Origin: a virus
Reading direction: 5' to 3' (one strand)
IMG/VR virus record: IMGVR_UViG_3300035179_000888
Span: 1 to 22,178 of that record
Length of the DNA stretch: 22,178 nt
Shown: in pieces, positions 1,974 to 20,365 of the stretch
Numbering within the stretch: position 1 is the first letter of the stretch
Layout of the letters: each line of letters opens with the position of its first letter
Notes under the pieces: generated by a model
What the model was told of the DNA's origin: nothing
Databases searched by the model: none
The model's input: only the letters and a program-made list of their open reading frames with translations
Translations under genes and position numbers: made by a program

Positions 1974-3407
1974 TCATTTTCTTTTCCAAAATAGGTAAAC
2001 TTTTGTTTGCAATAGCAAAGCTGTGACATGGATAAGTTTCGCAAGTTTCTCTAACGTTGCAGTCTCTACTCTCTGCCTATATAATTCCCGTTTTCCATAC
2101 GGTTCATGATAGAAAAATTCTTTCAAAAAGCGCACATGCACATTCTTCATGAACGCATGACGCATCTCCAAAACTTGTTCATCCGATAAGCCACGAAGCT
2201 TGTTGAGAACGTATTTTTGGCTACCTAACAAGACTATGTTGAAGCCCAGATTTGAAAGCACATCTCGAATGGCTAAAGCATGCTTAGGCGGAAGCTGCTC
2301 CATAACCTTCTGCATTCCTGCACGCTGGAAAAACGGATTATATTTGGCCATAACCGCTATTGTTTCAACATAAGGCGTGCCCACAAGCCGCAAGGTTTCT
2401 CGTACAAGTCGTTGACCCAAACCTACAGTACGATATTTGGGATGAACAACAACTCGCATAATAACACTCAGCTTTTGGTTCAAGTCTTGCACACTCATCT
2501 TAGGCAGAACTTTGAGACGCCCAGCGACGGCCATTCCAGGATAACAATAAACTATGACGCCTGCAACCTCATTGCTACGAACCGCACGAAAAATCTTGCG
2601 CACAATCCCAATCTGGTGACTACGGTAATGAAAACCCGCCAGTAACCCATAGTCAGATCTTGTGCCTTCTTCTATACGAATTTCCTTGGTTAGACTACTT
2701 TCCTTGGCTGGATCATTCGGAAAGTAGCACACTTCAATTTCTTTCCCAAATCGCTTGTGAACGTGAACCGAAGGCTTTAAGTCTTCAAATAAGTCGGTGT
2801 GTGTTGTGGCTGCTAGAACTGCCTTTCCTTCTTGTCTTGCTAGTTTTTGAAGGTTGTAGGCTACGATTTTGGCTGTGTCTCTGTCTAATGTTGCGCAGAA
2901 TTCGTCCATAACCCAGAACTGTTTGCCTGACTCGATTAGTTTGGCGATTCTGAAACGATACTTCTGCCCATCGCTTAATTGACTATACCGCCTAACAAAG
3001 AGGAATGCATCGTTTAAACCTACTCTGCTCAGCAGTTCTAAGCCTTCCTCAACAGTTTTGCCAACACAGTCAATTAACGGCTTATTCCTTTCAAGTTTGA
3101 CGTCATCTATGTTGATGGCTTGTGAGCCTAAATCCTTCTCTAAAGCCCGTAGCAAAACAGATTTTCCAGACCCTGACTCACCCGTGATATACACAATGTC
3201 CTCTGGACCTATCTTCAATTCTACATTGTCATAAACTACATGCCTCTGATAATCATCTACACCAAGCCCAAACGCTTCATGAACAGCAATAGTTCTGTCC
3301 GTGATGTCGGTCTTAGTCTTGTAGGCTATGTTGATTACGAACTTTCCAGTAGTGCGGTCATATTTTCTTGCGAATTTTGTTATCTTAAAGAATTCACGTT
3401 TTTGCAT
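1974..3407 (-). CDS. ABC-type ATPase fused to GNAT acetyltransferase (COG2401-like)
   Basis: 477 residues. The N-terminal part is a soluble ABC ATPase: Walker A GESGSGKS (76-83), signature LSDGQ (144-148), Walker B FWVMDE (164-169) and switch histidine in TTHTD (about 203). The C-terminal half carries a GNAT acetyltransferase core: VVVHPKYRTVGLGQRLV (319-335) matches the acetyl-CoA-binding R/QxxGxG/A motif, followed by YNPFFQRAGM, typical of the last GNAT strand and helix. There is no membrane segment, so it is not a transporter. The pairing matches the archaeal family described as an ABC-type ATPase fused to a predicted acetyltransferase; its substrate is unknown to me. It is the last gene of the tail operon, 21 nt after the preceding tail gene, which suggests late expression. 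Possible roles: modifying DNA (phage Mu Mom is GNAT-related), tRNA or a protein; this is inference. Confidence 0.85.
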   Translation of the reverse strand: MQKREFFKITKFARKYDRTTGKFVINIAYKTKTDITDRTIAVHEAFGLGVDDYQRHVVYDNVELKIGPEDIVYITGESGSGKSVLLRALEKDLGSQAINIDDVKLERNKPLIDCVGKTVEEGLELLSRVGLNDAFLFVRRYSQLSDGQKYRFRIAKLIESGKQFWVMDEFCATLDRDTAKIVAYNLQKLARQEGKAVLAATTHTDLFEDLKPSVHVHKRFGKEIEVCYFPNDPAKESSLTKEIRIEEGTRSDYGLLAGFHYRSHQIGIVRKIFRAVRSNEVAGVIVYCYPGMAVAGRLKVLPKMSVQDLNQKLSVIMRVVVHPKYRTVGLGQRLVRETLRLVGTPYVETIAVMAKYNPFFQRAGMQKVMEQLPPKHALAIRDVLSNLGFNIVLLGSQKYVLNKLRGLSDEQVLEMRHAFMKNVHVRFLKEFFYHEPYGKRELYRQRVETATLEKLAKLIHVTALLLQTKVYLFWKRK

Positions 3408-12752: not shown

Positions 12753-13190
12753 ATGGCGAAAGGCAAACGATGGACAGATGCGGAAGTTCAGCTTCTGCTG
12801 CAAATGGTTAAGGAAGGCAAATTCGTTGAGCAGATAATAGATTCTGGCAAGTTTCCAGATAGAACGCATAGAGCAATTGAAAATGCAGTTTCGAGGCTTA
12901 CTTTTGAGAACCAAAGGAAAAAATCGTTTGGTACTCAAATCAGAGAGGCTGAAATTGTAGGTTTAGAAACTATTGTTGCCCGTTATGTTGATGCTTTCAA
13001 CAAAATCTGCGACTTGAAAGAGTATGATAAGGCGGATCTGGAGCGTTTTCGCATAATTTTCCAGGCTGCTTGGAAGTATCGTGAGCTTTTCCGTGAATAT
13101 GAAAAACTGGAGGATTTGGAAGCCCGTGTGGAAAGCCTTGAGAATCTTCTGGCGGAGATTAAAGAGCAGAGAAGTAAGGCAGCGGTTTGA
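12753..13190 (+). CDS. Terminase small subunit-like protein, 145 aa
   Basis: 145 residues. The N-terminal domain (about 4-50) is a Myb/SANT-type three-helix DNA-binding fold: KRWTDAEVQLLLQMVKEGK, then FPDRTHRAIENAVSRL. The middle is helical, and the end (about 105-140: FREYEKLEDLEARVESLENL and onward) is a coiled coil suited to ring oligomerisation. DNA-binding head plus oligomerisation coil, placed immediately before TerL, supports the small terminase that selects viral DNA for packaging. No strong ribosome site; the start is 4 nt after the preceding gene, so coupling is likely. Its 3' end overlaps the assigned start of TerL. Confidence 0.75.
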   Translation: MAKGKRWTDAEVQLLLQMVKEGKFVEQIIDSGKFPDRTHRAIENAVSRLTFENQRKKSFGTQIREAEIVGLETIVARYVDAFNKICDLKEYDKADLERFRIIFQAAWKYRELFREYEKLEDLEARVESLENLLAEIKEQRSKAAV

Positions 13191-14511
13191 TAATATTGAA
13201 GAGGAAGCAAGAGATGTACTCCGCCAAGAAGAAGTCGAAATAGAAGGACCTGTAGATTTTGCTGAAAAAGTTTTAGGCATGAAGCCTTTTCCCTATCAAG
13301 CCAAACTACTTAAGGACAGTAGCAAACGCATCGTTGCATGCATGGGAAGGCAAACGGGCAAAACCACGACTATAGCTATGAAGGCCATTCATTTTGCAGA
13401 CACTAACCCAAATGTGACTGTGTTGATCACGGCTCCTAGCCTGAGGCAGAGCATGATAATGTTTGACCGTATAGCAGCCTTCGTTTATTCCTCAGCTTTC
13501 TTAAGAAACAAGGTAGTTAGGGCTACTAGAACGCTTATTCACTTTGAGAATGGAAGCCGAATAATCGCCTTACCATGTAGTGAGAACCTTTTGCGTGGCT
13601 ATACTGCAACTATGGTGATTTTGGATGAAGCCTCGTGGATACCTGAAGAAGTTATTACGCAGATTCTTTTTCCAATGCTGACTACGACACAAGGTTATGC
13701 AATTTTCTTGAGCACTCCATGGGACAAAAACCACTTCTTCTACAGAGCCTTTGTTAACCCAAACTATAGTGTGCATAAGGTGAAGTCTCAAGAATGTCCG
13801 CTTGTGACTGCTGAGTTTTTGGAAGAGATGCGTCAGAACATGACGCGTGAAGCCTACTTGATGGAGTATGAAGCCGAGTTTGTTGAAGCCTTAAACAGTT
13901 ATTTTCCGCAGGAGTTGATCCGCAGATGTGTTGAACTCGCCCAAAAACTAGGTAGCGAACTATACACAAGCCTTGAAACAGCCTTCTTAAGCGGCGATTA
14001 CTATGCTGGAGTGGATTTTGGCAAACTCGCCGACTATTCTGTACTTACGGTTTTGAAACGTGATACTGACATTGTTAAACTTGTTTACATGTATCAGTTT
14101 CCGCTTGAAACTCCATACAGCAAAGTCATTGGACATCTTGTAAGGGCTAACCAGAAATTTGCGTTCAGAAAAATGCTTGTGGACCAAACAGGCGTAGGCG
14201 AACCCGTAACCGAGGAGATATGCAACCAAGGCGTAAAAAACGTGGAAGGAATAAAATTCACGGTTCAAACCAAGGAAGAGTTACTTTCAAGCCTGAAAAT
14301 TGTTATGGAACAGAATCGTTTGGCAATACCCTACCATAGGCAGCTGTGCGAGCAAATCAACGAGCAACAGTACAGCTACAGCAAAAGCGGACATTTACAG
14401 TTCAGCCACCCCGAAAACGCTCATGACGATATACTGTGGGCATTAGCGCTTAGCGTCTATGGGGCAAGAGAACCAAGAAAAATACCAGCATTCACTTTCG
14501 GACGAGAGTAG
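13126..14511 (+). CDS. terL: Terminase large subunit, 461 aa
   Basis: ATPase and nuclease motor that packages DNA through the portal. Seen in the sequence (numbered from GTG 13126): adenine-binding FPYQAKLL, Walker A GRQTGKT (74-80), Walker B VILDEA (164-169), coupling motif FLSTPWD (about 194-200), and RNase H-type nuclease residues in YAGVDFGKLADYS (D297), MLVDQTGVGEP (D353) and AHDDILWAL (D434/D435). The set is complete, so the enzyme should be active. The true start is uncertain: the frame is open from GTG 13081, no in-frame ATG lies between 13101 and the ATG at about 13279, and GTG 13126 has GGAGG 12 nt upstream inside the TerS gene. The gene therefore overlaps TerS by about 65 nt. A tRNA-like sequence begins just after its stop. 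Confidence 0.92.
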   Translation: MWKALRIFWRRLKSREVRQRFDNIEEEARDVLRQEEVEIEGPVDFAEKVLGMKPFPYQAKLLKDSSKRIVACMGRQTGKTTTIAMKAIHFADTNPNVTVLITAPSLRQSMIMFDRIAAFVYSSAFLRNKVVRATRTLIHFENGSRIIALPCSENLLRGYTATMVILDEASWIPEEVITQILFPMLTTTQGYAIFLSTPWDKNHFFYRAFVNPNYSVHKVKSQECPLVTAEFLEEMRQNMTREAYLMEYEAEFVEALNSYFPQELIRRCVELAQKLGSELYTSLETAFLSGDYYAGVDFGKLADYSVLTVLKRDTDIVKLVYMYQFPLETPYSKVIGHLVRANQKFAFRKMLVDQTGVGEPVTEEICNQGVKNVEGIKFTVQTKEELLSSLKIVMEQNRLAIPYHRQLCEQINEQQYSYSKSGHLQFSHPENAHDDILWALALSVYGAREPRKIPAFTFGRE

Positions 14512-14520
14512 GCCCCGTCT

Positions 14521-14553
14521 AGTTTGTGGGTTCAAATCCCACACCCGGCTCCG
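14521..14553 (+). other. tRNA 3'-end-like sequence, candidate attachment site
   Basis: Directly after the terL stop lies a perfect T-arm: stem GTGGG (14526-14530), loop TTCAAAT (14531-14537) and stem CCCAC (14538-14542), followed by ACCCGGC, which reads like the 3' acceptor strand of a tRNA. No D-arm, anticodon arm or 5' acceptor strand is present upstream, where the terL C-terminus is encoded. A 3' tRNA half alone is what integrating elements carry as attP/att. It could be the virus's own attachment core or the scar of an insertion that brought in the two cargo genes downstream. The base after the acceptor (T) is unusual for a discriminator. Confidence 0.55.
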
Positions 14554-14593
14554 TTCTTGAACCTTTATTTCCGTTTAGAAGGGTAACTCATAA

Positions 14594-14606
14594 ATTTATT
14601 TAATAC
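14594..14606 (+). promoter_or_regulatory. Putative TATA promoter of the glycosylase-nuclease pair
   Basis: ATTTATTTAATAC (14594-14606) is a good archaeal TATA-type element about 37 bp before ATG 14636, predicting a leader of about 10 nt. The two cargo genes thus appear to have their own promoter and not to depend on the terminase operon. Confidence 0.5.
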
Positions 14607-14635
14607 ATTATCTGTAATTGTTGATAGGCCCAACA

Positions 14636-15433
14636 ATGCAAAAATATAGAGAGATATTCACTCAAATAGAAGATACCCTGCGTAAAGAAAGCGGTCTTTC
14701 AAGAGAGTTGTTTAACTCTCGTTTTGGAGATTTCAAGAATGTTAGTTATAAGAATATGTCGGATGAAGACATTTTTTGGACGATGGTTTATGTTGTCTTT
14801 TATTCTGGAATGCGTGCATCTACTGTTTCTCAAAGACTACCTACTTTAAAAAAGTACCTGTATGATTTCACGAAAGTGAAGGAATACTCTCAAAAAGAGG
14901 TAAACCAAATTCTAAAAGACCCTGATTCAATCCATTATAAACGCAAAATTGAAGCCTGTATAACGAATGCTAAAGAATTCTACAATATTGTAACCAGGTA
15001 TAGTTCATTTACAAAATATCTCGAGTCATTCGGCGAGCTTACCGATGAGAAAACCATCAACAAGTTACGAGTAGATTTGGAAAGTAGATTTCAATATCTC
15101 GGCAAGAGGACAGTTAATCACTTTCTAACAGATTTGGGCGTTAACGTTCTTAAACCTGACAGAGTCATTTGTAGAATTTTTTCAAGACTTGGGTTAATTA
15201 GTGGAGAAGATGACATAGCACATACCATTGATGTAGGTAGGGAAATTGCATTAGTAACTGGTTATCCAATAAGATATGTGGACATCATTTTTGTAAAATA
15301 TGGTCAGATGGGAAAAGATGATTACTTTGGGTTGGAGGATGGAATATGTTTGGAAAGGAAACCAAAGTGCAAAAAATGTGGAGTAAGAAACTATTGTAAG
15401 CATTATGCGTGCATGGTCCACCTTGAGGGATGA
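14636..15433 (+). CDS. HhH-GPD DNA glycosylase, Tag-like with Fe-S cluster motif, 265 aa
   Basis: Base-excision enzyme that should remove a damaged or modified base from DNA. The N-terminal half resembles 3-methyladenine glycosylase I (Tag): DEDIFWTMVYVVFYSGMR, then YKRKIEACITNAKEFYNIV and FTKYLESFG. Next comes the helix-hairpin-helix with the catalytic aspartate region (LGKRTVNHFL, VLKPDRVICRIFSRLG). The Asp of KPDR matches the conserved glycosylase Asp. The lysine used by EndoIII-type lyases appears replaced by Arg (KRT), which suggests a monofunctional enzyme. The C-terminus has CLERKPKCKKCGVRNYC, an exact C-x6-C-x2-C-x5-C spacing as in EndoIII Fe-S clusters. ATG 14636 is preferred over TTG 14618. 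The stop overlaps the next gene as ATGA. Confidence 0.85.
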   Translation: MQKYREIFTQIEDTLRKESGLSRELFNSRFGDFKNVSYKNMSDEDIFWTMVYVVFYSGMRASTVSQRLPTLKKYLYDFTKVKEYSQKEVNQILKDPDSIHYKRKIEACITNAKEFYNIVTRYSSFTKYLESFGELTDEKTINKLRVDLESRFQYLGKRTVNHFLTDLGVNVLKPDRVICRIFSRLGLISGEDDIAHTIDVGREIALVTGYPIRYVDIIFVKYGQMGKDDYFGLEDGICLERKPKCKKCGVRNYCKHYACMVHLEG

Positions 15434-16170
15434 TTATGGTTGCGACCATGAAGGATTGGGATAGTAGAGAAATTCGAATAGCAACAAGCAAAGGGGGCAA
15501 AATAAGTGTATGTGACTACGAAGATAACGTTATCATCCCCCATCATTCAATTTGGCCTCATCCCGATATTGTCAAGAAACTGTATAAGAGTGAGCATAGC
15601 AAAGACTTTGATGCCCCCGCGCTTTCTGAGCTGTCTAAAAAGCTCGGGTTCTACTGCGATCTGCAATCACTGAGAAGCGAGGATGCAATTACATGGTCGG
15701 TATTTGGAACTTTGCACTACTTCACTAAAGAATCTCAAGTTCAGTTCGTCAACTCGCTTCTAGATACGATTAATGAGAAACTGCAGGTTAATGATTGTTC
15801 AATTCAGCTTTGGACTCGAATAGCACATCCAGACACACTTGTTTCTGGCGGACCTGAGCTAGACTTCCAAATTGTCAGCGACAAAGTTGTCTTATTCGGT
15901 GAATCTAAGTGGACGGCAAAGGTAGCTGAAGAACAAGGGAAAGAAAAGGACAAGAATCAACTACAACTCAGAGGGGAATATCAACAAAAATATGGGAATC
16001 GAATATTCCACAAAGCGGACAGATTAATAGTCTTAGCTGTTGGGCTTTCAGAGCAACGAAGCCATAATTATCCCTATATCACATGGGAAGAGATTTGCAA
16101 CAAGACGCAACACCCATTAAAAAACGAAATCAAGAGTTACTACTTATGGAAAAAGGAACATGGAAGATAA
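15430..16170 (+). CDS. PD-(D/E)XK restriction-type endonuclease, 246 aa
   Basis: 246 residues. A helix with LRSEDAITWSVFGTL (about 81-95) supplies the acidic residue often seen before the core. The core is GPELDFQI (D145) followed by VVLFGESKW (E158, K160), which reads as the D-xn-ExK metal site of the PD-(D/E)XK superfamily. NQLQLRGEYQQKY (about 176-188) then resembles the Q-rich helix seen after the core in several restriction enzymes. The gene overlaps the glycosylase stop by 4 nt (ATGA), so the two are co-translated. An internal ATG at 15436 has GAGGG 6 nt upstream and may be the real start. There is no methyltransferase nearby, so it is not a classical restriction-modification system. 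Cutting DNA at sites opened by the glycosylase is a reasonable inference. Confidence 0.78.
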   Translation: MIMVATMKDWDSREIRIATSKGGKISVCDYEDNVIIPHHSIWPHPDIVKKLYKSEHSKDFDAPALSELSKKLGFYCDLQSLRSEDAITWSVFGTLHYFTKESQVQFVNSLLDTINEKLQVNDCSIQLWTRIAHPDTLVSGGPELDFQIVSDKVVLFGESKWTAKVAEEQGKEKDKNQLQLRGEYQQKYGNRIFHKADRLIVLAVGLSEQRSHNYPYITWEEICNKTQHPLKNEIKSYYLWKKEHGR

Positions 16171-16225
16171 CAGAAAAAAAGCGGTGTTTGCAAGGGATAT
16201 CACCAGCCTTCTGGTACAATCACCA

Positions 16226-16486
16226 TTAAAAGGAAGGTTTGAGATTGGTTGCTATCTTTTCGGCTTCAGAAATGTATTCAGCTATTCGGCGTCCAGCAGT
16301 TGAAAGCCTGCTCAGTCGTCTAGGCGCGTGAAACTCGCTCATCAACAAGCCTTCTTCAGCTAGAAACTTTACTATCCTACAGCAATGCTCCTGCGTAATG
16401 CCGACACGTCTAGCAATTTGATTATTTTGCAAAGGCTCCTGCTTAAGCAATTCGATCAAAATTTTCTGTTCAAGAGTGAGAAGCAT
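16226..16486 (-). CDS. Winged-helix transcription regulator, 86 aa
   Basis: 86 residues forming a compact winged helix: LTLEQKILIELLKQEPLQNN (helix 1), QIARRVGITQEHCCRIVKFLAEEGLL (helix-turn-helix, about 23-48), then a wing with HAPRRLSRLSTAGRRIAEYI. It resembles MarR/ArsR-like archaeal viral regulators. A TATA-like element (complement of 16518-16526) lies about 36 bp before the ATG, consistent with a leader of about 9 nt. It stands alone between the convergent nuclease gene and the end of the head operon, and is a candidate regulator of the operator motifs described near 18496-18577. Confidence 0.8.
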   Translation of the reverse strand: MLLTLEQKILIELLKQEPLQNNQIARRVGITQEHCCRIVKFLAEEGLLMSEFHAPRRLSRLSTAGRRIAEYISEAEKIATNLKPSF

Positions 16487-16761: not shown

Positions 16762-17646
16762 CTAAGTGATGCCTGTTATCTCGCAGATTGCTGTAGGTCT
16801 TTTAATTCTGGGAACAACAGCCTCATAGACTTTGAAGTGGTGTGAAAGGTCTAGCGCTTGCATGTAGAATGTCTTCAAGTCTTGAGCCACGCATACGTCT
16901 GCGTTTTCAGCTCCCGACTTCATGAGGATAACACTGTTTGTTGTGCCGCCAGAAGCCTTGAGCTGACTAGAAACGTACACTTGTCCGCCGATGAGTTCTT
17001 TCATTTTCTCCAGCTGACTTATCCCGGTGTTAGCGATTAGTGTATGTGCATCCATGAAGGCGCTGGGTTGCAGTATCAAATCGTATGGCGGAGGATAATA
17101 CTTTTCTAGGAGTTTCTTAGCTGCTGCACGAACATCACTCAAAGCATTCGGGCTTGTTGCCCATGCTCCACCGCTTGCTTGTGTCTGTCTTCCAGTAGCA
17201 GTTGTTAACCCTTCTATACCAAGCATTGGCTCGCCCGTGATTTGACCATTAAGTATAAGGCGGTCTTCTTTTTGGGCAACTACAAGAGCTGCGCTTTCAG
17301 CGTTCGCTGCGTCAAGAGTTGTTCCGAAGCGTCTGGAAGATTCTAGGTCTCTCATTGAAATCCTGAAGTCCTTGTGCAAGATTGGCACGATCAGCGATTT
17401 GCGCGTGTAAAGCACTACATCTTCACCTGGAGTCTCTCCGTACATGCTGATTAAGGCTGCACTCATCTCAGTCAATTCATCCCAGCTGACACTCATGACG
17501 CCGATACCTGCCAATGCTTTCACTGGCAAGACGCGTCTGCCCACAAGCACGGGTTGAACAGCTCGGACTACAGCTTCATCAAGTTGCTTCCATTCCTCTT
17601 CCACAAGAGGCGCCTGTGCTCTTCCAACAAGATGCAACGGATCCAT
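16762..17646 (-). CDS. Major capsid protein, encapsulin-like HK97 fold, 294 aa
   Basis: 294 residues. The sequence follows family 1 encapsulin/linocin-type HK97 capsids: an N-terminal helix with APLVEEEWKQLDEAV, a GRRVLPV strand, DLESSRRFGTTLDAANAESAALVVAQKEDRLILNG as the long spine-helix region, GIEGLTTATG, and YDLILQPSAFMDAH in the A-domain. The order after scaffold and decoration genes, and the portal, protease and terminase nearby, show that it is a virus capsid and not a cellular nanocompartment. ATG 17646 is preceded by GGTGA within the end of the decoration gene. No separate delta domain is visible, as expected when a scaffold gene is present. Confidence 0.83.
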   Translation of the reverse strand: MDPLHLVGRAQAPLVEEEWKQLDEAVVRAVQPVLVGRRVLPVKALAGIGVMSVSWDELTEMSAALISMYGETPGEDVVLYTRKSLIVPILHKDFRISMRDLESSRRFGTTLDAANAESAALVVAQKEDRLILNGQITGEPMLGIEGLTTATGRQTQASGGAWATSPNALSDVRAAAKKLLEKYYPPPYDLILQPSAFMDAHTLIANTGISQLEKMKELIGGQVYVSSQLKASGGTTNSVILMKSGAENADVCVAQDLKTFYMQALDLSHHFKVYEAVVPRIKRPTAICEITGIT

Positions 17647-18087: not shown

Positions 18088-18447
18088 TCACTCCTTATGA
18101 TATAGGCAACCTACAGTTAGCTTGCCTTCGCCTTCGCTTGCTTCTGCACCAGCGCTTCTTATGTTCTTCACTGTGCCCTTCGCACTATCAGTAGCCTTCT
18201 CAACTAGCTTAAGCTGAGGAAGATCCATCTTGTCAAGCTCGTCTTTGCTCCAGTTAGCCTTCTCCATGATGACTTTGATTGTGACCTCTTTCTCACGGTC
18301 CACATAAACCTTCAATACTTTGCTTGCCTCGTCTAGAGTTTGACGTAGCTTCTGGTTTTCAGTGTCCAATTCAACATTGCACTTTTCTAGGTCTGCATTT
18401 TTAGCCTTGAAAGCCTCAACATTTTCTTCTTGTTTTTGCTGAGACAT
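18088..18447 (-). CDS. Capsid scaffolding-like protein, 119 aa
   Basis: 119 residues with a coiled coil over about the first 55 residues (ENVEAFKAKNADLEKCNVEL and onward), then a short helical section (WSKDELDKMDLPQLKLVEKA) and a flexible end. Length, coiled coil and position just before decoration and capsid genes fit a scaffolding protein, which guides assembly and is removed by the protease. It is the first gene of this transcript. A TATA-like element and three operator-like repeats lie upstream. Confidence 0.66.
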   Translation of the reverse strand: MSQQKQEENVEAFKAKNADLEKCNVELDTENQKLRQTLDEASKVLKVYVDREKEVTIKVIMEKANWSKDELDKMDLPQLKLVEKATDSAKGTVKNIRSAGAEASEGEGKLTVGCLYHKE

Positions 18448-18479
18448 TTTTCATCCTGAAAACAAGCCTACAACAGGTG

Positions 18480-18491
18480 ATATTATTTCAG
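18480..18491 (-). promoter_or_regulatory. BRE/TATA promoter of the head operon
   Basis: The minus strand reads CTGAAATAATAT here, about 37 bp before the ATG at 18447. The same 12-mer occurs at 20689-20700 before the 81-aa membrane protein gene. GAAA next to an AT-rich box matches the archaeal BRE-TATA layout and predicts a leader of about 10 nt. Confidence 0.58.
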
Positions 18492-18495
18492 TGGA

Positions 18496-18577
18496 TTTCA
18501 ATTAATCAAAATCTATATGGACTTTACATTTTGACTAACCAAAATTTTAATGGACAAAGATTTCACCTAATCAAAAT
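18496..18577. repeat. Three operator-like repeats before the head operon
   Basis: The 17-bp motif TTTYAVYTAAYCAAAAT occurs at 18496-18512 (TTTCAATTAATCAAAAT), at 18529-18545 (TTTTGACTAACCAAAAT, one departure at the fourth and fifth bases) and at 18561-18577 (TTTCACCTAATCAAAAT). Spacing is 33 and 32 bp, three helical turns, so bound proteins would sit on the same DNA face. Each copy is roughly palindromic (ATTTTG...CAAAAT in the second), as expected for a dimeric regulator. The array lies just upstream of the head-operon BRE/TATA element, between divergent promoters. Confidence 0.68.
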
Positions 18578-18612
18578 GGTGTAGTTTTCTAGAACTCAGT
18601 TTCAACCAGAAA

Positions 18613-18624
18613 GAAATTTATAAC
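18613..18624 (+). promoter_or_regulatory. Putative BRE/TATA promoter of the 137-aa membrane protein
   Basis: GAAATTTATAAC (18613-18624) lies about 36 bp before ATG 18656, predicting a leader of about 9 nt. It is on the opposite strand from the head-operon promoter and shares the operator array between them. Confidence 0.5.
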
Positions 18625-18655
18625 AGACAGAAGAAATCCCTTAGAGTTGAAGACT

Positions 18656-19069
18656 ATGGGTATACTTGAATCTGTCTTTTTAACACCTATAGGAAAATAT
18701 GTTTTAGAACTGATTTTTGCTTCCCTAGCTATAGTTTTCAACAAGATTAGTGATCCTGACCTCAAGGGTGACGAGTTATTCTTCAAAGCTCCTAAAATAA
18801 AGACAGGTACTTTTAATTGGACAATGTTCACAATTGGTATAGTATATGCTATTATAATAGATCATAGCAATTTCAATAAATCAATGATTATGTTTTTTGT
18901 CCTAATCATCTTCATCATAGTTATGGCTGGTTGTTGGAGAGTTGTTGGACTTGGACGAGATTGGCGTGGTTCTGAGACATTTGCCAATATAGCTATGTAT
19001 GGTGGACCATTAACTCTTTCAATTCTATCCTTGATCGTCTTTATCTTTCTCGATACAGCTCAGATTTGA
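18656..19069 (+). CDS. Multi-pass membrane protein, 137 aa
   Basis: 137 residues from ATG 18656 (TTG 18647 is an alternative start). Four hydrophobic segments are visible, at about 13-29, 53-69, 76-95 and 110-132, with a charged loop near residues 30-50 (KISDPDLKGDE) and another at WRVVGLGRDWRGSE. No family was recognised. It is transcribed against the surrounding head genes from its own TATA element and lies between the protease and scaffold genes. It is AT-richer in feel than its neighbours, which suggests an acquired accessory gene, for instance for superinfection exclusion or host membrane interaction (inference). Confidence 0.68.
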   Translation: MGILESVFLTPIGKYVLELIFASLAIVFNKISDPDLKGDELFFKAPKIKTGTFNWTMFTIGIVYAIIIDHSNFNKSMIMFFVLIIFIIVMAGCWRVVGLGRDWRGSETFANIAMYGGPLTLSILSLIVFIFLDTAQI

Positions 19070-19144
19070 GAAGTCACCAAATTTCAATTTTGGATTTTCT
19101 ATAGGCAAAGAGGAGCTGCTTCTTCTGACTTAAGTTCTTATTTT

Positions 19145-20365
19145 CTAGAAAGCAACCTTTAGCTGAGCGACCAAAGCCTTAACCCTAGCGATTATTGCAT
19201 CTGCAGCCTCAAAGCCTTGAAGTTTTTCCTTCACATTCGCAGGCAGAGCTCTAGCTTCTGGCAACTCTTGGTCATAGTTTAAAGCTATACCATACTGTAG
19301 TGCACGTCGCACAATGCGCTCATAAATAACATTCCTCTCCGACTGCTCATACTCTTCTCTAAATGCACTCCAACGGGCTAATGCATTTTTGCAGCGGTCT
19401 TCTGGCACAAGTGGATACTTGTAGTTGACTGGGTCTGCATAGTCGTCTTCGTTTGTTGGGTAGCCTTCAGGCGGTGTTAAGTGTCCTTCGCCTTCACGGA
19501 ATTTTATGCCGTATTTCTCTTCTCTCCGTTTTGCAGCTTCATGTAGCTCTTCTCTTTCCCCCTCTTCTTCACTCTGATTTTCATTCGCTCTATCGCCTTC
19601 CTCCTTTGTTGCTGGCTCAAAAGTTCCATCATGCTCTTGACAGTGGTTACGGGCTTGGTCTTCACTCCAATTCTCTACTGGATAGCGGTAAGCCTGCTCA
19701 ACTGAACCCGCATCTTTCTCTCCTTTTGGCTTGCCATAAATCACGCGGTAGGTTTTGCCATCATGTTCTCTGGTTCCGCTACCGACAATATCAAGCGTAT
19801 CTGGGTTTCTAAGTCTGCAACTATGCTCATTCGGGTAAGGATCTGCTCCTCTTAGTGTGTCCACACCTATTCCACATGCTGGATAGCTACATCTTCCCTG
19901 CCAGTCTCCAACGGCTACATGGTCGATGAGAATGTCACGTTTAACATAGTCGTAGTGCTTGCCCTTCCACTCACCAGACTCTGGTAAACACTCCCAAAAG
20001 AAGCCTATGCTAACGCTTTGAACCTTACCGCTCTTTATATCTGCCAAATATTTTGGGCTACAACGGTCTTTAAAAAACACTAGGTCAGCTTTTATGCGGT
20101 CCTTTTCAAACTTGGGGTTGCGAACAGTGCCACGAATAAGCCTTGGACTAGACAAAATTATTTCTGGCGGATGGTCTTCGACAATCCAAGCGTTTTCGGC
20201 TGTGAAGGCTGATTTCTCAACTTCTTCGGCTGGCTCGTAAACTAGCGTGCCTTCATAGTCGTAGACGCCTTCTCGCGTGATTACAGCTGGCACAGTAAGT
20301 ATCCGATCGTCTTCGCTAACCGTTAGCTTGTCAACTTCAACGCTGTTCAAACCGTATTTTCGCAT
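19145..20365 (-). CDS. Prohead protease (DUF2213-type) with extra C-terminal domains, 406 aa
   Basis: Residues about 1-170 form a DUF2213-type capsid maturation protease: RILTVPAVITREGVYDYEG, a histidine in EDHPPEI (H65), the serine strand VQSVSIGFFWE (S117/S119), and RDILIDHVAVGDWQGRCS with H149. The middle part (about 180-255) is a separate cysteine- and aromatic-containing module (SCRLRNPDTL, YRVIYGKPKGEKDAG, WSEDQARNHCQEHDGTFEP) also found in other phage head proteins. After an acidic linker, about 285-370 resembles DUF6582 (YPLVPEDRCKNALARWSAF). It cleaves scaffold and capsid proteins inside the prohead. It is followed by the opposite-facing membrane gene, so it ends its transcript. Confidence 0.8.
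   Translation of the reverse strand: MRKYGLNSVEVDKLTVSEDDRILTVPAVITREGVYDYEGTLVYEPAEEVEKSAFTAENAWIVEDHPPEIILSSPRLIRGTVRNPKFEKDRIKADLVFFKDRCSPKYLADIKSGKVQSVSIGFFWECLPESGEWKGKHYDYVKRDILIDHVAVGDWQGRCSYPACGIGVDTLRGADPYPNEHSCRLRNPDTLDIVGSGTREHDGKTYRVIYGKPKGEKDAGSVEQAYRYPVENWSEDQARNHCQEHDGTFEPATKEEGDRANENQSEEEGEREELHEAAKRREEKYGIKFREGEGHLTPPEGYPTNEDDYADPVNYKYPLVPEDRCKNALARWSAFREEYEQSERNVIYERIVRRALQYGIALNYDQELPEARALPANVKEKLQGFEAADAIIARVKALVAQLKVAF

What the first reader, a model, noticed from the sequence alone, without database searches (positions are those of the whole stretch)
14521..16170. Glycosylase plus PD-(D/E)XK nuclease cargo next to a tRNA-like scar
A Tag-like HhH-GPD glycosylase with an EndoIII-type C-x6-C-x2-C-x5-C cluster motif and a PD-(D/E)XK nuclease overlap by ATGA, share their own TATA promoter, and lie between terminase and head genes directly after a tRNA 3'-end-like sequence. 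No methyltransferase is nearby. Glycosylases that attack modified phage DNA are known as defence proteins (Brig1). A viral pair of glycosylase and nuclease could therefore be an undescribed system against rival viruses with modified bases, or one that degrades host DNA. Function is inferred.
Basis: partly seen in the sequence, partly recalled or inferred. Interest (0 to 1): 0.8.

Follow-up and report, generated by a model that had tools for sequence, protein, structure and literature searches.

The report
Glycosylase-nuclease cargo in archaeal virus
A virus, probably of archaea, carries two extra DNA-attacking genes at a spot where related viruses carry other extra genes; one is a base-removing enzyme closely related to a gene of methane-eating archaea, and the pair itself was seen only here, so a dedicated two-gene weapon is possible but unproven.

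Summary
The window is a whole 22.2-kb IMG/VR contig of a tailed virus, probably archaeal. GLY (14636-15433) is an HhH-GPD DNA glycosylase with an EndoIII-type iron-sulfur motif (model pLDDT 94.8). It belongs to an uncharacterised, sporadic family; 31 of 31 aligned members keep KPD175 and the four cysteines, and all match PADLOC 'OGG'. NUC (15430-16170; ATGA overlap) is a divergent PD-(D/E)XK nuclease, indicated by a shared SEDxxTxxVF + ExK signature and weak matches to PADLOC PDC-M15A; its fold could not be modelled.

Relatives show an accessory-gene hotspot between TerL and a wHTH gene: empty in three, filled with BrxC/D-like, Schlafen AlbA_2 or nuclease-like genes in others. The cassette begins at a tRNA 3'-end-like sequence; L005 has a similar one at the same site, L003 at a second hotspot. 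GLY's closest relative is from Ca. Methanoperedens (70% identity, dN/dS about 0.15), where the family also lies beside tRNA genes.

The pair was not found again: 0 of 36 GLY loci had such a nuclease directly downstream. GLY is not a Brig1 homologue. Best reading: conflict or repair cargo captured from an archaeal tRNA-linked island. Joint action is unsupported.

The parts
13189..14511 (+). TerL (large terminase), left flank of the hotspot; longer frame starts at 13081
   Evidence: Terminase_6N E=5e-16; 39 relatives in IMG/VR
14512..16225 (.). Inserted cargo segment: DNA homology to sister virus L015 stops at about 14513 and resumes at about 16234; L002, L003 and L006 have TerL directly next to wHTH
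14515..14552 (+). tRNA 3'-end-like sequence (T-arm 14526-14542, then acceptor-like ACCCGGCTCC); candidate attachment-site imprint or recombination scar
   Evidence: same arrangement in L005 (9370) and, at a second hotspot, L003 (11615)
14592..14605 (+). A/T-rich TATA-like stretch 30-45 nt before the GLY start (promoter not demonstrated)
   Evidence: sequence; not conserved in relatives
14636..15433 (+). GLY: HhH-GPD DNA glycosylase, 265 aa, catalytic-Asp motif KPD175, FeS motif Cx6Cx2Cx5C
15430..16170 (+). NUC: divergent PD-(D/E)XK nuclease-like protein, 246 aa; SEDAITWSVF signature and ELD-x12-ESK
16226..16486 (-). wHTH regulator gene, right flank of the hotspot
   Evidence: HTH_24 E=5e-7; conserved in relatives

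Best explanation
The two genes are an accessory cassette captured by a tailed virus, probably of an archaeon, at a variable site between TerL and a small regulator gene. The left edge is a tRNA 3'-end-like sequence. GLY is most likely a monofunctional DNA glycosylase that flips out and removes a particular damaged or modified base with Asp175, using an iron-sulfur domain for DNA contact, and leaves an abasic site. NUC is most likely a metal-dependent PD-(D/E)XK nuclease that cuts DNA. I think the cassette serves conflict between genetic elements: during infection or as a provirus the products attack or block rival DNA. Shown: insertion, families (GLY firmly, NUC by motif and remote homology), catalytic and cluster residues, purifying selection on GLY, archaeal relatedness. 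Inferred: activity, target, and any joint action. Two separate enzymes with neighbouring genes are at least as likely as one system.
For: Hotspot with defence-like alternatives: L008 BrxC/D-like ATPase plus PDC-M34B/HEPN_Swt1-like protein, L005 and L013 Schlafen AlbA_2, L009 kinase-like and nuclease-like genes, L015 NucS-like nuclease at a second site. GLY family is sporadic (7 of 238 genomes in the class) and in part found beside RM genes: L067 type IIG-like MTase and SNF2 helicase, L052 HsdS, L077 N6-MTase, L150 MTase 31 bp upstream on the same strand, L148 Dam-type MTase plus two nuclease-like genes. L147 against L148 shows those RM-type genes lying between GLY and the tRNA-Thr 3' end in one genome only. 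GLY GC is 35% against 43-49% for most core virus genes; dN/dS about 0.15 against Methanoperedens. Two separated viral GLY clades. Invariant KPD175 and Cys; no conserved catalytic Lys (position 157 variable). NUC motifs.
Against: Many bacterial GLY members lie beside housekeeping genes (metH, a class II tRNA synthetase, biotin carboxylase, riboflavin synthesis), which fits ordinary repair. No substrate evidence. NUC has only distant relatives and no usable model. GLY and NUC differ in GC (0.35 against 0.41), so they may have separate origins. The pair does not recur. Host is unknown.
Confidence: 0.5

Rival explanations
1. GLY is a plain base-excision-repair enzyme that helps virus or host DNA survive damage (alkylation, oxidation or deamination); NUC is an unrelated passenger or an accessory repair nuclease.
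For: Homology to Tag, Ogg and MutY folds; many bacterial members stand alone beside housekeeping genes; purifying selection.
Against: Sporadic distribution, location at tRNA sites and beside RM genes in archaea, and position in a virus cargo hotspot with defence-like alternatives.
Confidence: 0.33
2. GLY and NUC form a dedicated two-component restriction system against DNA with modified bases: GLY makes an abasic site, NUC cuts there.
For: ATGA overlap suggests co-translation; both classes act on DNA; glycosylase-based defence exists in Brig1 and Brig3 (PMC11078745, PMC13160076).
Against: No second instance: 0 of 36 GLY loci, no credible NUC match in the searched genomes; different GC.
Confidence: 0.12
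3. The products degrade host DNA or act as counter-defence during infection, freeing nucleotides or removing host modification marks.
For: Nucleases for host-DNA breakdown are common in lytic phages (general knowledge).
Against: Two relatives carry integrases, so the group seems temperate; no anti-host signature was found; the closest GLY relatives are cellular genes.
Confidence: 0.05

Closest known systems
HhH-GPD glycosylases: Tag (DNA-3-methyladenine glycosylase I), EndoIII/MutY, archaeal Ogg (3knt, 3n0u)
   Same: Fold and N-terminal Tag-type region; EndoIII-type FeS loop; catalytic Asp position
   Different: Combines a Tag-like N-terminal half with a KPD catalytic motif and FeS cluster; no conserved catalytic Lys; curated Tag model cut-off missed (29 against 232.5 bits)
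PADLOC 'OGG' (PDLC00910)
   Same: All 31 aligned GLY members match, P0001 at E=1e-16
   Different: PADLOC's system context for OGG could not be looked up; matching a model does not show defence
PADLOC PDC-M15A PD-(D/E)XK proteins
   Same: Shared 'SEDxxTxxVFxxLxYL' segment and ExK motif
   Different: Only weak scores (E about 1e-4; hhalign P=0.002); the partner gene seen beside M15A (about 210-250 aa) is absent next to NUC
Brig1 / Brig3 anti-phage glycosylases
   Same: Idea of a glycosylase acting against phage DNA
   Different: Uracil-DNA-glycosylase superfamily, not HhH-GPD

Membership tests
HhH-GPD DNA glycosylase superfamily | HhH-GPD fold with hairpin and catalytic Asp | tested here: met
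   Model pLDDT 94.8; Foldseek to Tag, Ogg, MutY, EndoIII E 2e-5 to 1e-3; D175 in 31/31
HhH-GPD DNA glycosylase superfamily | EndoIII-type FeS motif Cx6Cx2Cx5C (subset of the superfamily) | tested here: met
   Four Cys in 31/31 aligned members
HhH-GPD DNA glycosylase superfamily | Base-excision activity | not testable with these tools
   Needs an assay
Tag (DNA-3-methyladenine glycosylase I) | Curated full-length Tag model score | tested here: not met
   29 bits against cut-off 232.5 (TIGR00624)
Brig1-type anti-phage glycosylase | Uracil-DNA-glycosylase superfamily fold | tested here: not met
   Model matches HhH-GPD structures; Brig1 and Brig3 are UDG superfamily
PD-(D/E)XK nuclease | Conserved D...ExK active-site motif in a related family | tested here: met
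   ELD-x12-ESK; SEDAITW + EPD/ExK shared with L125, L126, L129 and PDC-M15A members
PD-(D/E)XK nuclease | alpha-beta-beta-beta-alpha-beta core fold | tested here: inconclusive
   Model pLDDT 35.7; profile of five relatives hits PDB nuclease 4qbn only at E=0.5
Two-gene glycosylase-nuclease system | Recurrent adjacency of the two genes | tested here: not met
   0 of 36 loci; no NUC in searched GLY genomes
Provirus tRNA attachment site | tRNA 3'-end identity repeated at the other provirus end, with integrase beside it | tested here: inconclusive
   T-arm present but no integrase in the window; integrases at contig ends of two relatives; host tRNA not found in 393 genomes

The most novel reading that the evidence does not exclude
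A virus-borne two-component base-excision restriction system in which an FeS HhH-GPD glycosylase turns modified bases of rival DNA into abasic sites and a co-translated PD-(D/E)XK nuclease cuts there, used against rival viruses.
Probability: 0.12. Interest if true: 0.75.

Novelty: new member of a known kind. Interest (0 to 1): 0.42.

Why it matters
The GLY family is a widespread but apparently unstudied FeS HhH-GPD clade that archaeal viruses and archaeal tRNA-linked islands seem to have picked up more than once, several times beside restriction-modification genes. If it acts in conflict, it would extend glycosylase defence beyond the uracil-glycosylase fold. The hotspot map gives a list of cargo genes in these viruses to test.

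Tried and rejected
Direct pattern and tblastn searches for both proteins in IMG/VR, phages and plasmids found nothing for NUC and only Tag-level matches for GLY. The first alignment-based scan chose poor patterns; a catalytic-motif pattern worked. Rfam gave only a sub-threshold RNase MRP match on the tRNA-like stretch, read as chance. ARAGORN calls no complete tRNA in the window. TerL search in the phylum of L069 was empty, and in the Methanoperedens class only distant TerL relatives appeared, at most 39% identity, so the host stays open. The scar pattern was absent from 393 genomes. The first idea that PADLOC OGG and PDC-M15A form one system was dropped: the gene beside M15A is a different protein. 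Weak NUC hits in genomes (E 0.004 or worse, some with stops inside) were judged chance. The hoped-for promoter conservation was absent.

Full report
WHAT IS THERE. The window is a complete IMG/VR contig with a tailed-virus gene set: portal, capsid (best match Linocin_M18/encapsulin family, E=1e-44), cement, tail tube, HK97-gp10-like and terminase genes. GLY (14636-15433) and NUC (15430-16170) overlap by ATGA. Upstream, a perfect 17-nt tRNA T-arm lies at 14526-14542, followed by an acceptor-like stretch; no complete tRNA is called.

THE SITE IS A CARGO HOTSPOT. Thirty-nine TerL relatives were fetched. With the window genes placed on them, TerL abuts the wHTH gene in L002, L003 and L006; 0.7-3.7 kb of other DNA lies there in L004, L005, L008, L009, L013 and L015. 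DNA similarity to L015 ends at about 14513 and resumes at about 16234, so the cassette is an insertion or replacement of about 1.7 kb. Other cargo at this site includes a BrxC/D-like ATPase with a PDC-M34B/HEPN_Swt1-like protein (L008), Schlafen AlbA_2 proteins (L005, L013), and kinase-like and nuclease-like genes (L009; the nuclease call is from its sequence motif); a NucS-like nuclease sits at a second hotspot between the scaffold-like and protease-like genes in L015. L009 carries its own GLY relative in that second hotspot.

THE tRNA-LIKE SCAR. The same T-arm with a different acceptor end (CCCCCGCACCA) lies at the same place in L005 and at the second hotspot in L003. Exact T-arm hairpins look more frequent than expected in these contigs (my own rough estimate is about 0.25 expected, several observed, some possibly coding). 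Two relatives have an integrase at a contig end. I read the scar as an attachment-site imprint or a recombination edge; this is inferred, since no matching host tRNA or second copy was found.

GLY. A catalytic-motif pattern (KPDxxhxRhFxRLG) gave 39 genome loci, of which about 30 hold clear family members. Thirty-one sequences were aligned: K173, P174, D175, R180, D216 and C238, C245, C248, C254 are invariant. Position 157, which lines up with the EndoIII catalytic Lys in my ungapped comparison of the two motifs, is variable, which predicts a monofunctional glycosylase. All 31 match PADLOC OGG. The tree joins P0001 with Methanoperedens LFW-280_3_1 (L061; identity of that genome from PMC8561730) and another archaeon (L069) at high support; L009 and the viral contig L043 form a separate clade. 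dN/dS against L061 is about 0.15 (dS about 1.2).

CELLULAR CONTEXT. Seven of 238 genomes of the Methanoperedens class hold the family. A tRNA gene lies 303 bp (L147, Thr), 15 bp (L149, Gly) and about 730 bp (L153, Ser) from GLY; in L148 three restriction-modification-type genes (named from sequence by eye) sit between GLY and the tRNA-Thr, and L147 lacks them at the aligned site. Bacterial members show no such tRNA link; some lie near RM genes, many near housekeeping genes. L147, L148 and L152 share surroundings, so these are not independent counts.

NUC. No close relative was found. PADLOC PDC-M15A models match weakly (E about 1e-4). Three M15A members and three near-identical viral proteins found with the pattern EDx[IL]TWxVFxxL share the N-terminal SED..T..VF motif followed by D...ExK, as in NUC. 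The single-sequence model is unusable. PD-(D/E)XK is therefore likely by motif and remote homology, not shown by structure.

HOW IT WORKS. GLY: base flipping and excision to an AP site (inferred from family). NUC: metal-dependent cleavage (inferred). Use in conflict between elements is my preferred reading, repair is a close second, and obligate cooperation is unsupported because the pair does not recur. GLY and NUC also differ in GC.

KNOWN OR NEW. Both components are divergent members of known superfamilies. Brig1 and Brig3 are a different fold. No paper in the searched library combined DNA glycosylase, anti-phage, helix-hairpin-helix and nuclease; that is a narrow search of an incomplete library.

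Noticed in passing
window 18447-19145; L009 6561-7367; L003 11615; L015 13306-14145: Second cargo hotspot between the scaffold-like and protease-like genes; holds a low-GC ORF in the window, a GLY relative in L009, a bare tRNA 3' end in L003 and a NucS-like nuclease in L015.
   Followed up: partly
L148 1735-4960 against L147 5561-5864: Restriction-modification-type genes (Dam-type methylase and two nuclease-like proteins) sit between GLY and the tRNA-Thr 3' end in one archaeal genome and are absent from the aligned site of a relative.
   Followed up: partly
L150 6388-8194: A GLY-family gene lies 31 bp downstream of a DNA methyltransferase gene on the same strand, a methylase-glycosylase pair in an archaeal genome.
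   Followed up: no
L102 7734-7809: ARAGORN predicts a tRNA with anticodon TTA (would read the stop codon TAA) in the sister virus contig of L015; could be a suppressor tRNA or a misprediction.
   Followed up: no
window 16762-17646: The major capsid protein matches the encapsulin family (Linocin_M18) far better than phage capsid families in Pfam.
   Followed up: no
window 1974-3407: ABC-type ATPase fused to a GNAT-like domain; homologues lie directly beside TerL in several related viruses.
   Followed up: no
L008 9282-12082: BrxC/D-like ATPase with an adjacent HEPN_Swt1/PDC-M34B-like protein at the same hotspot of a sister virus.
   Followed up: partly
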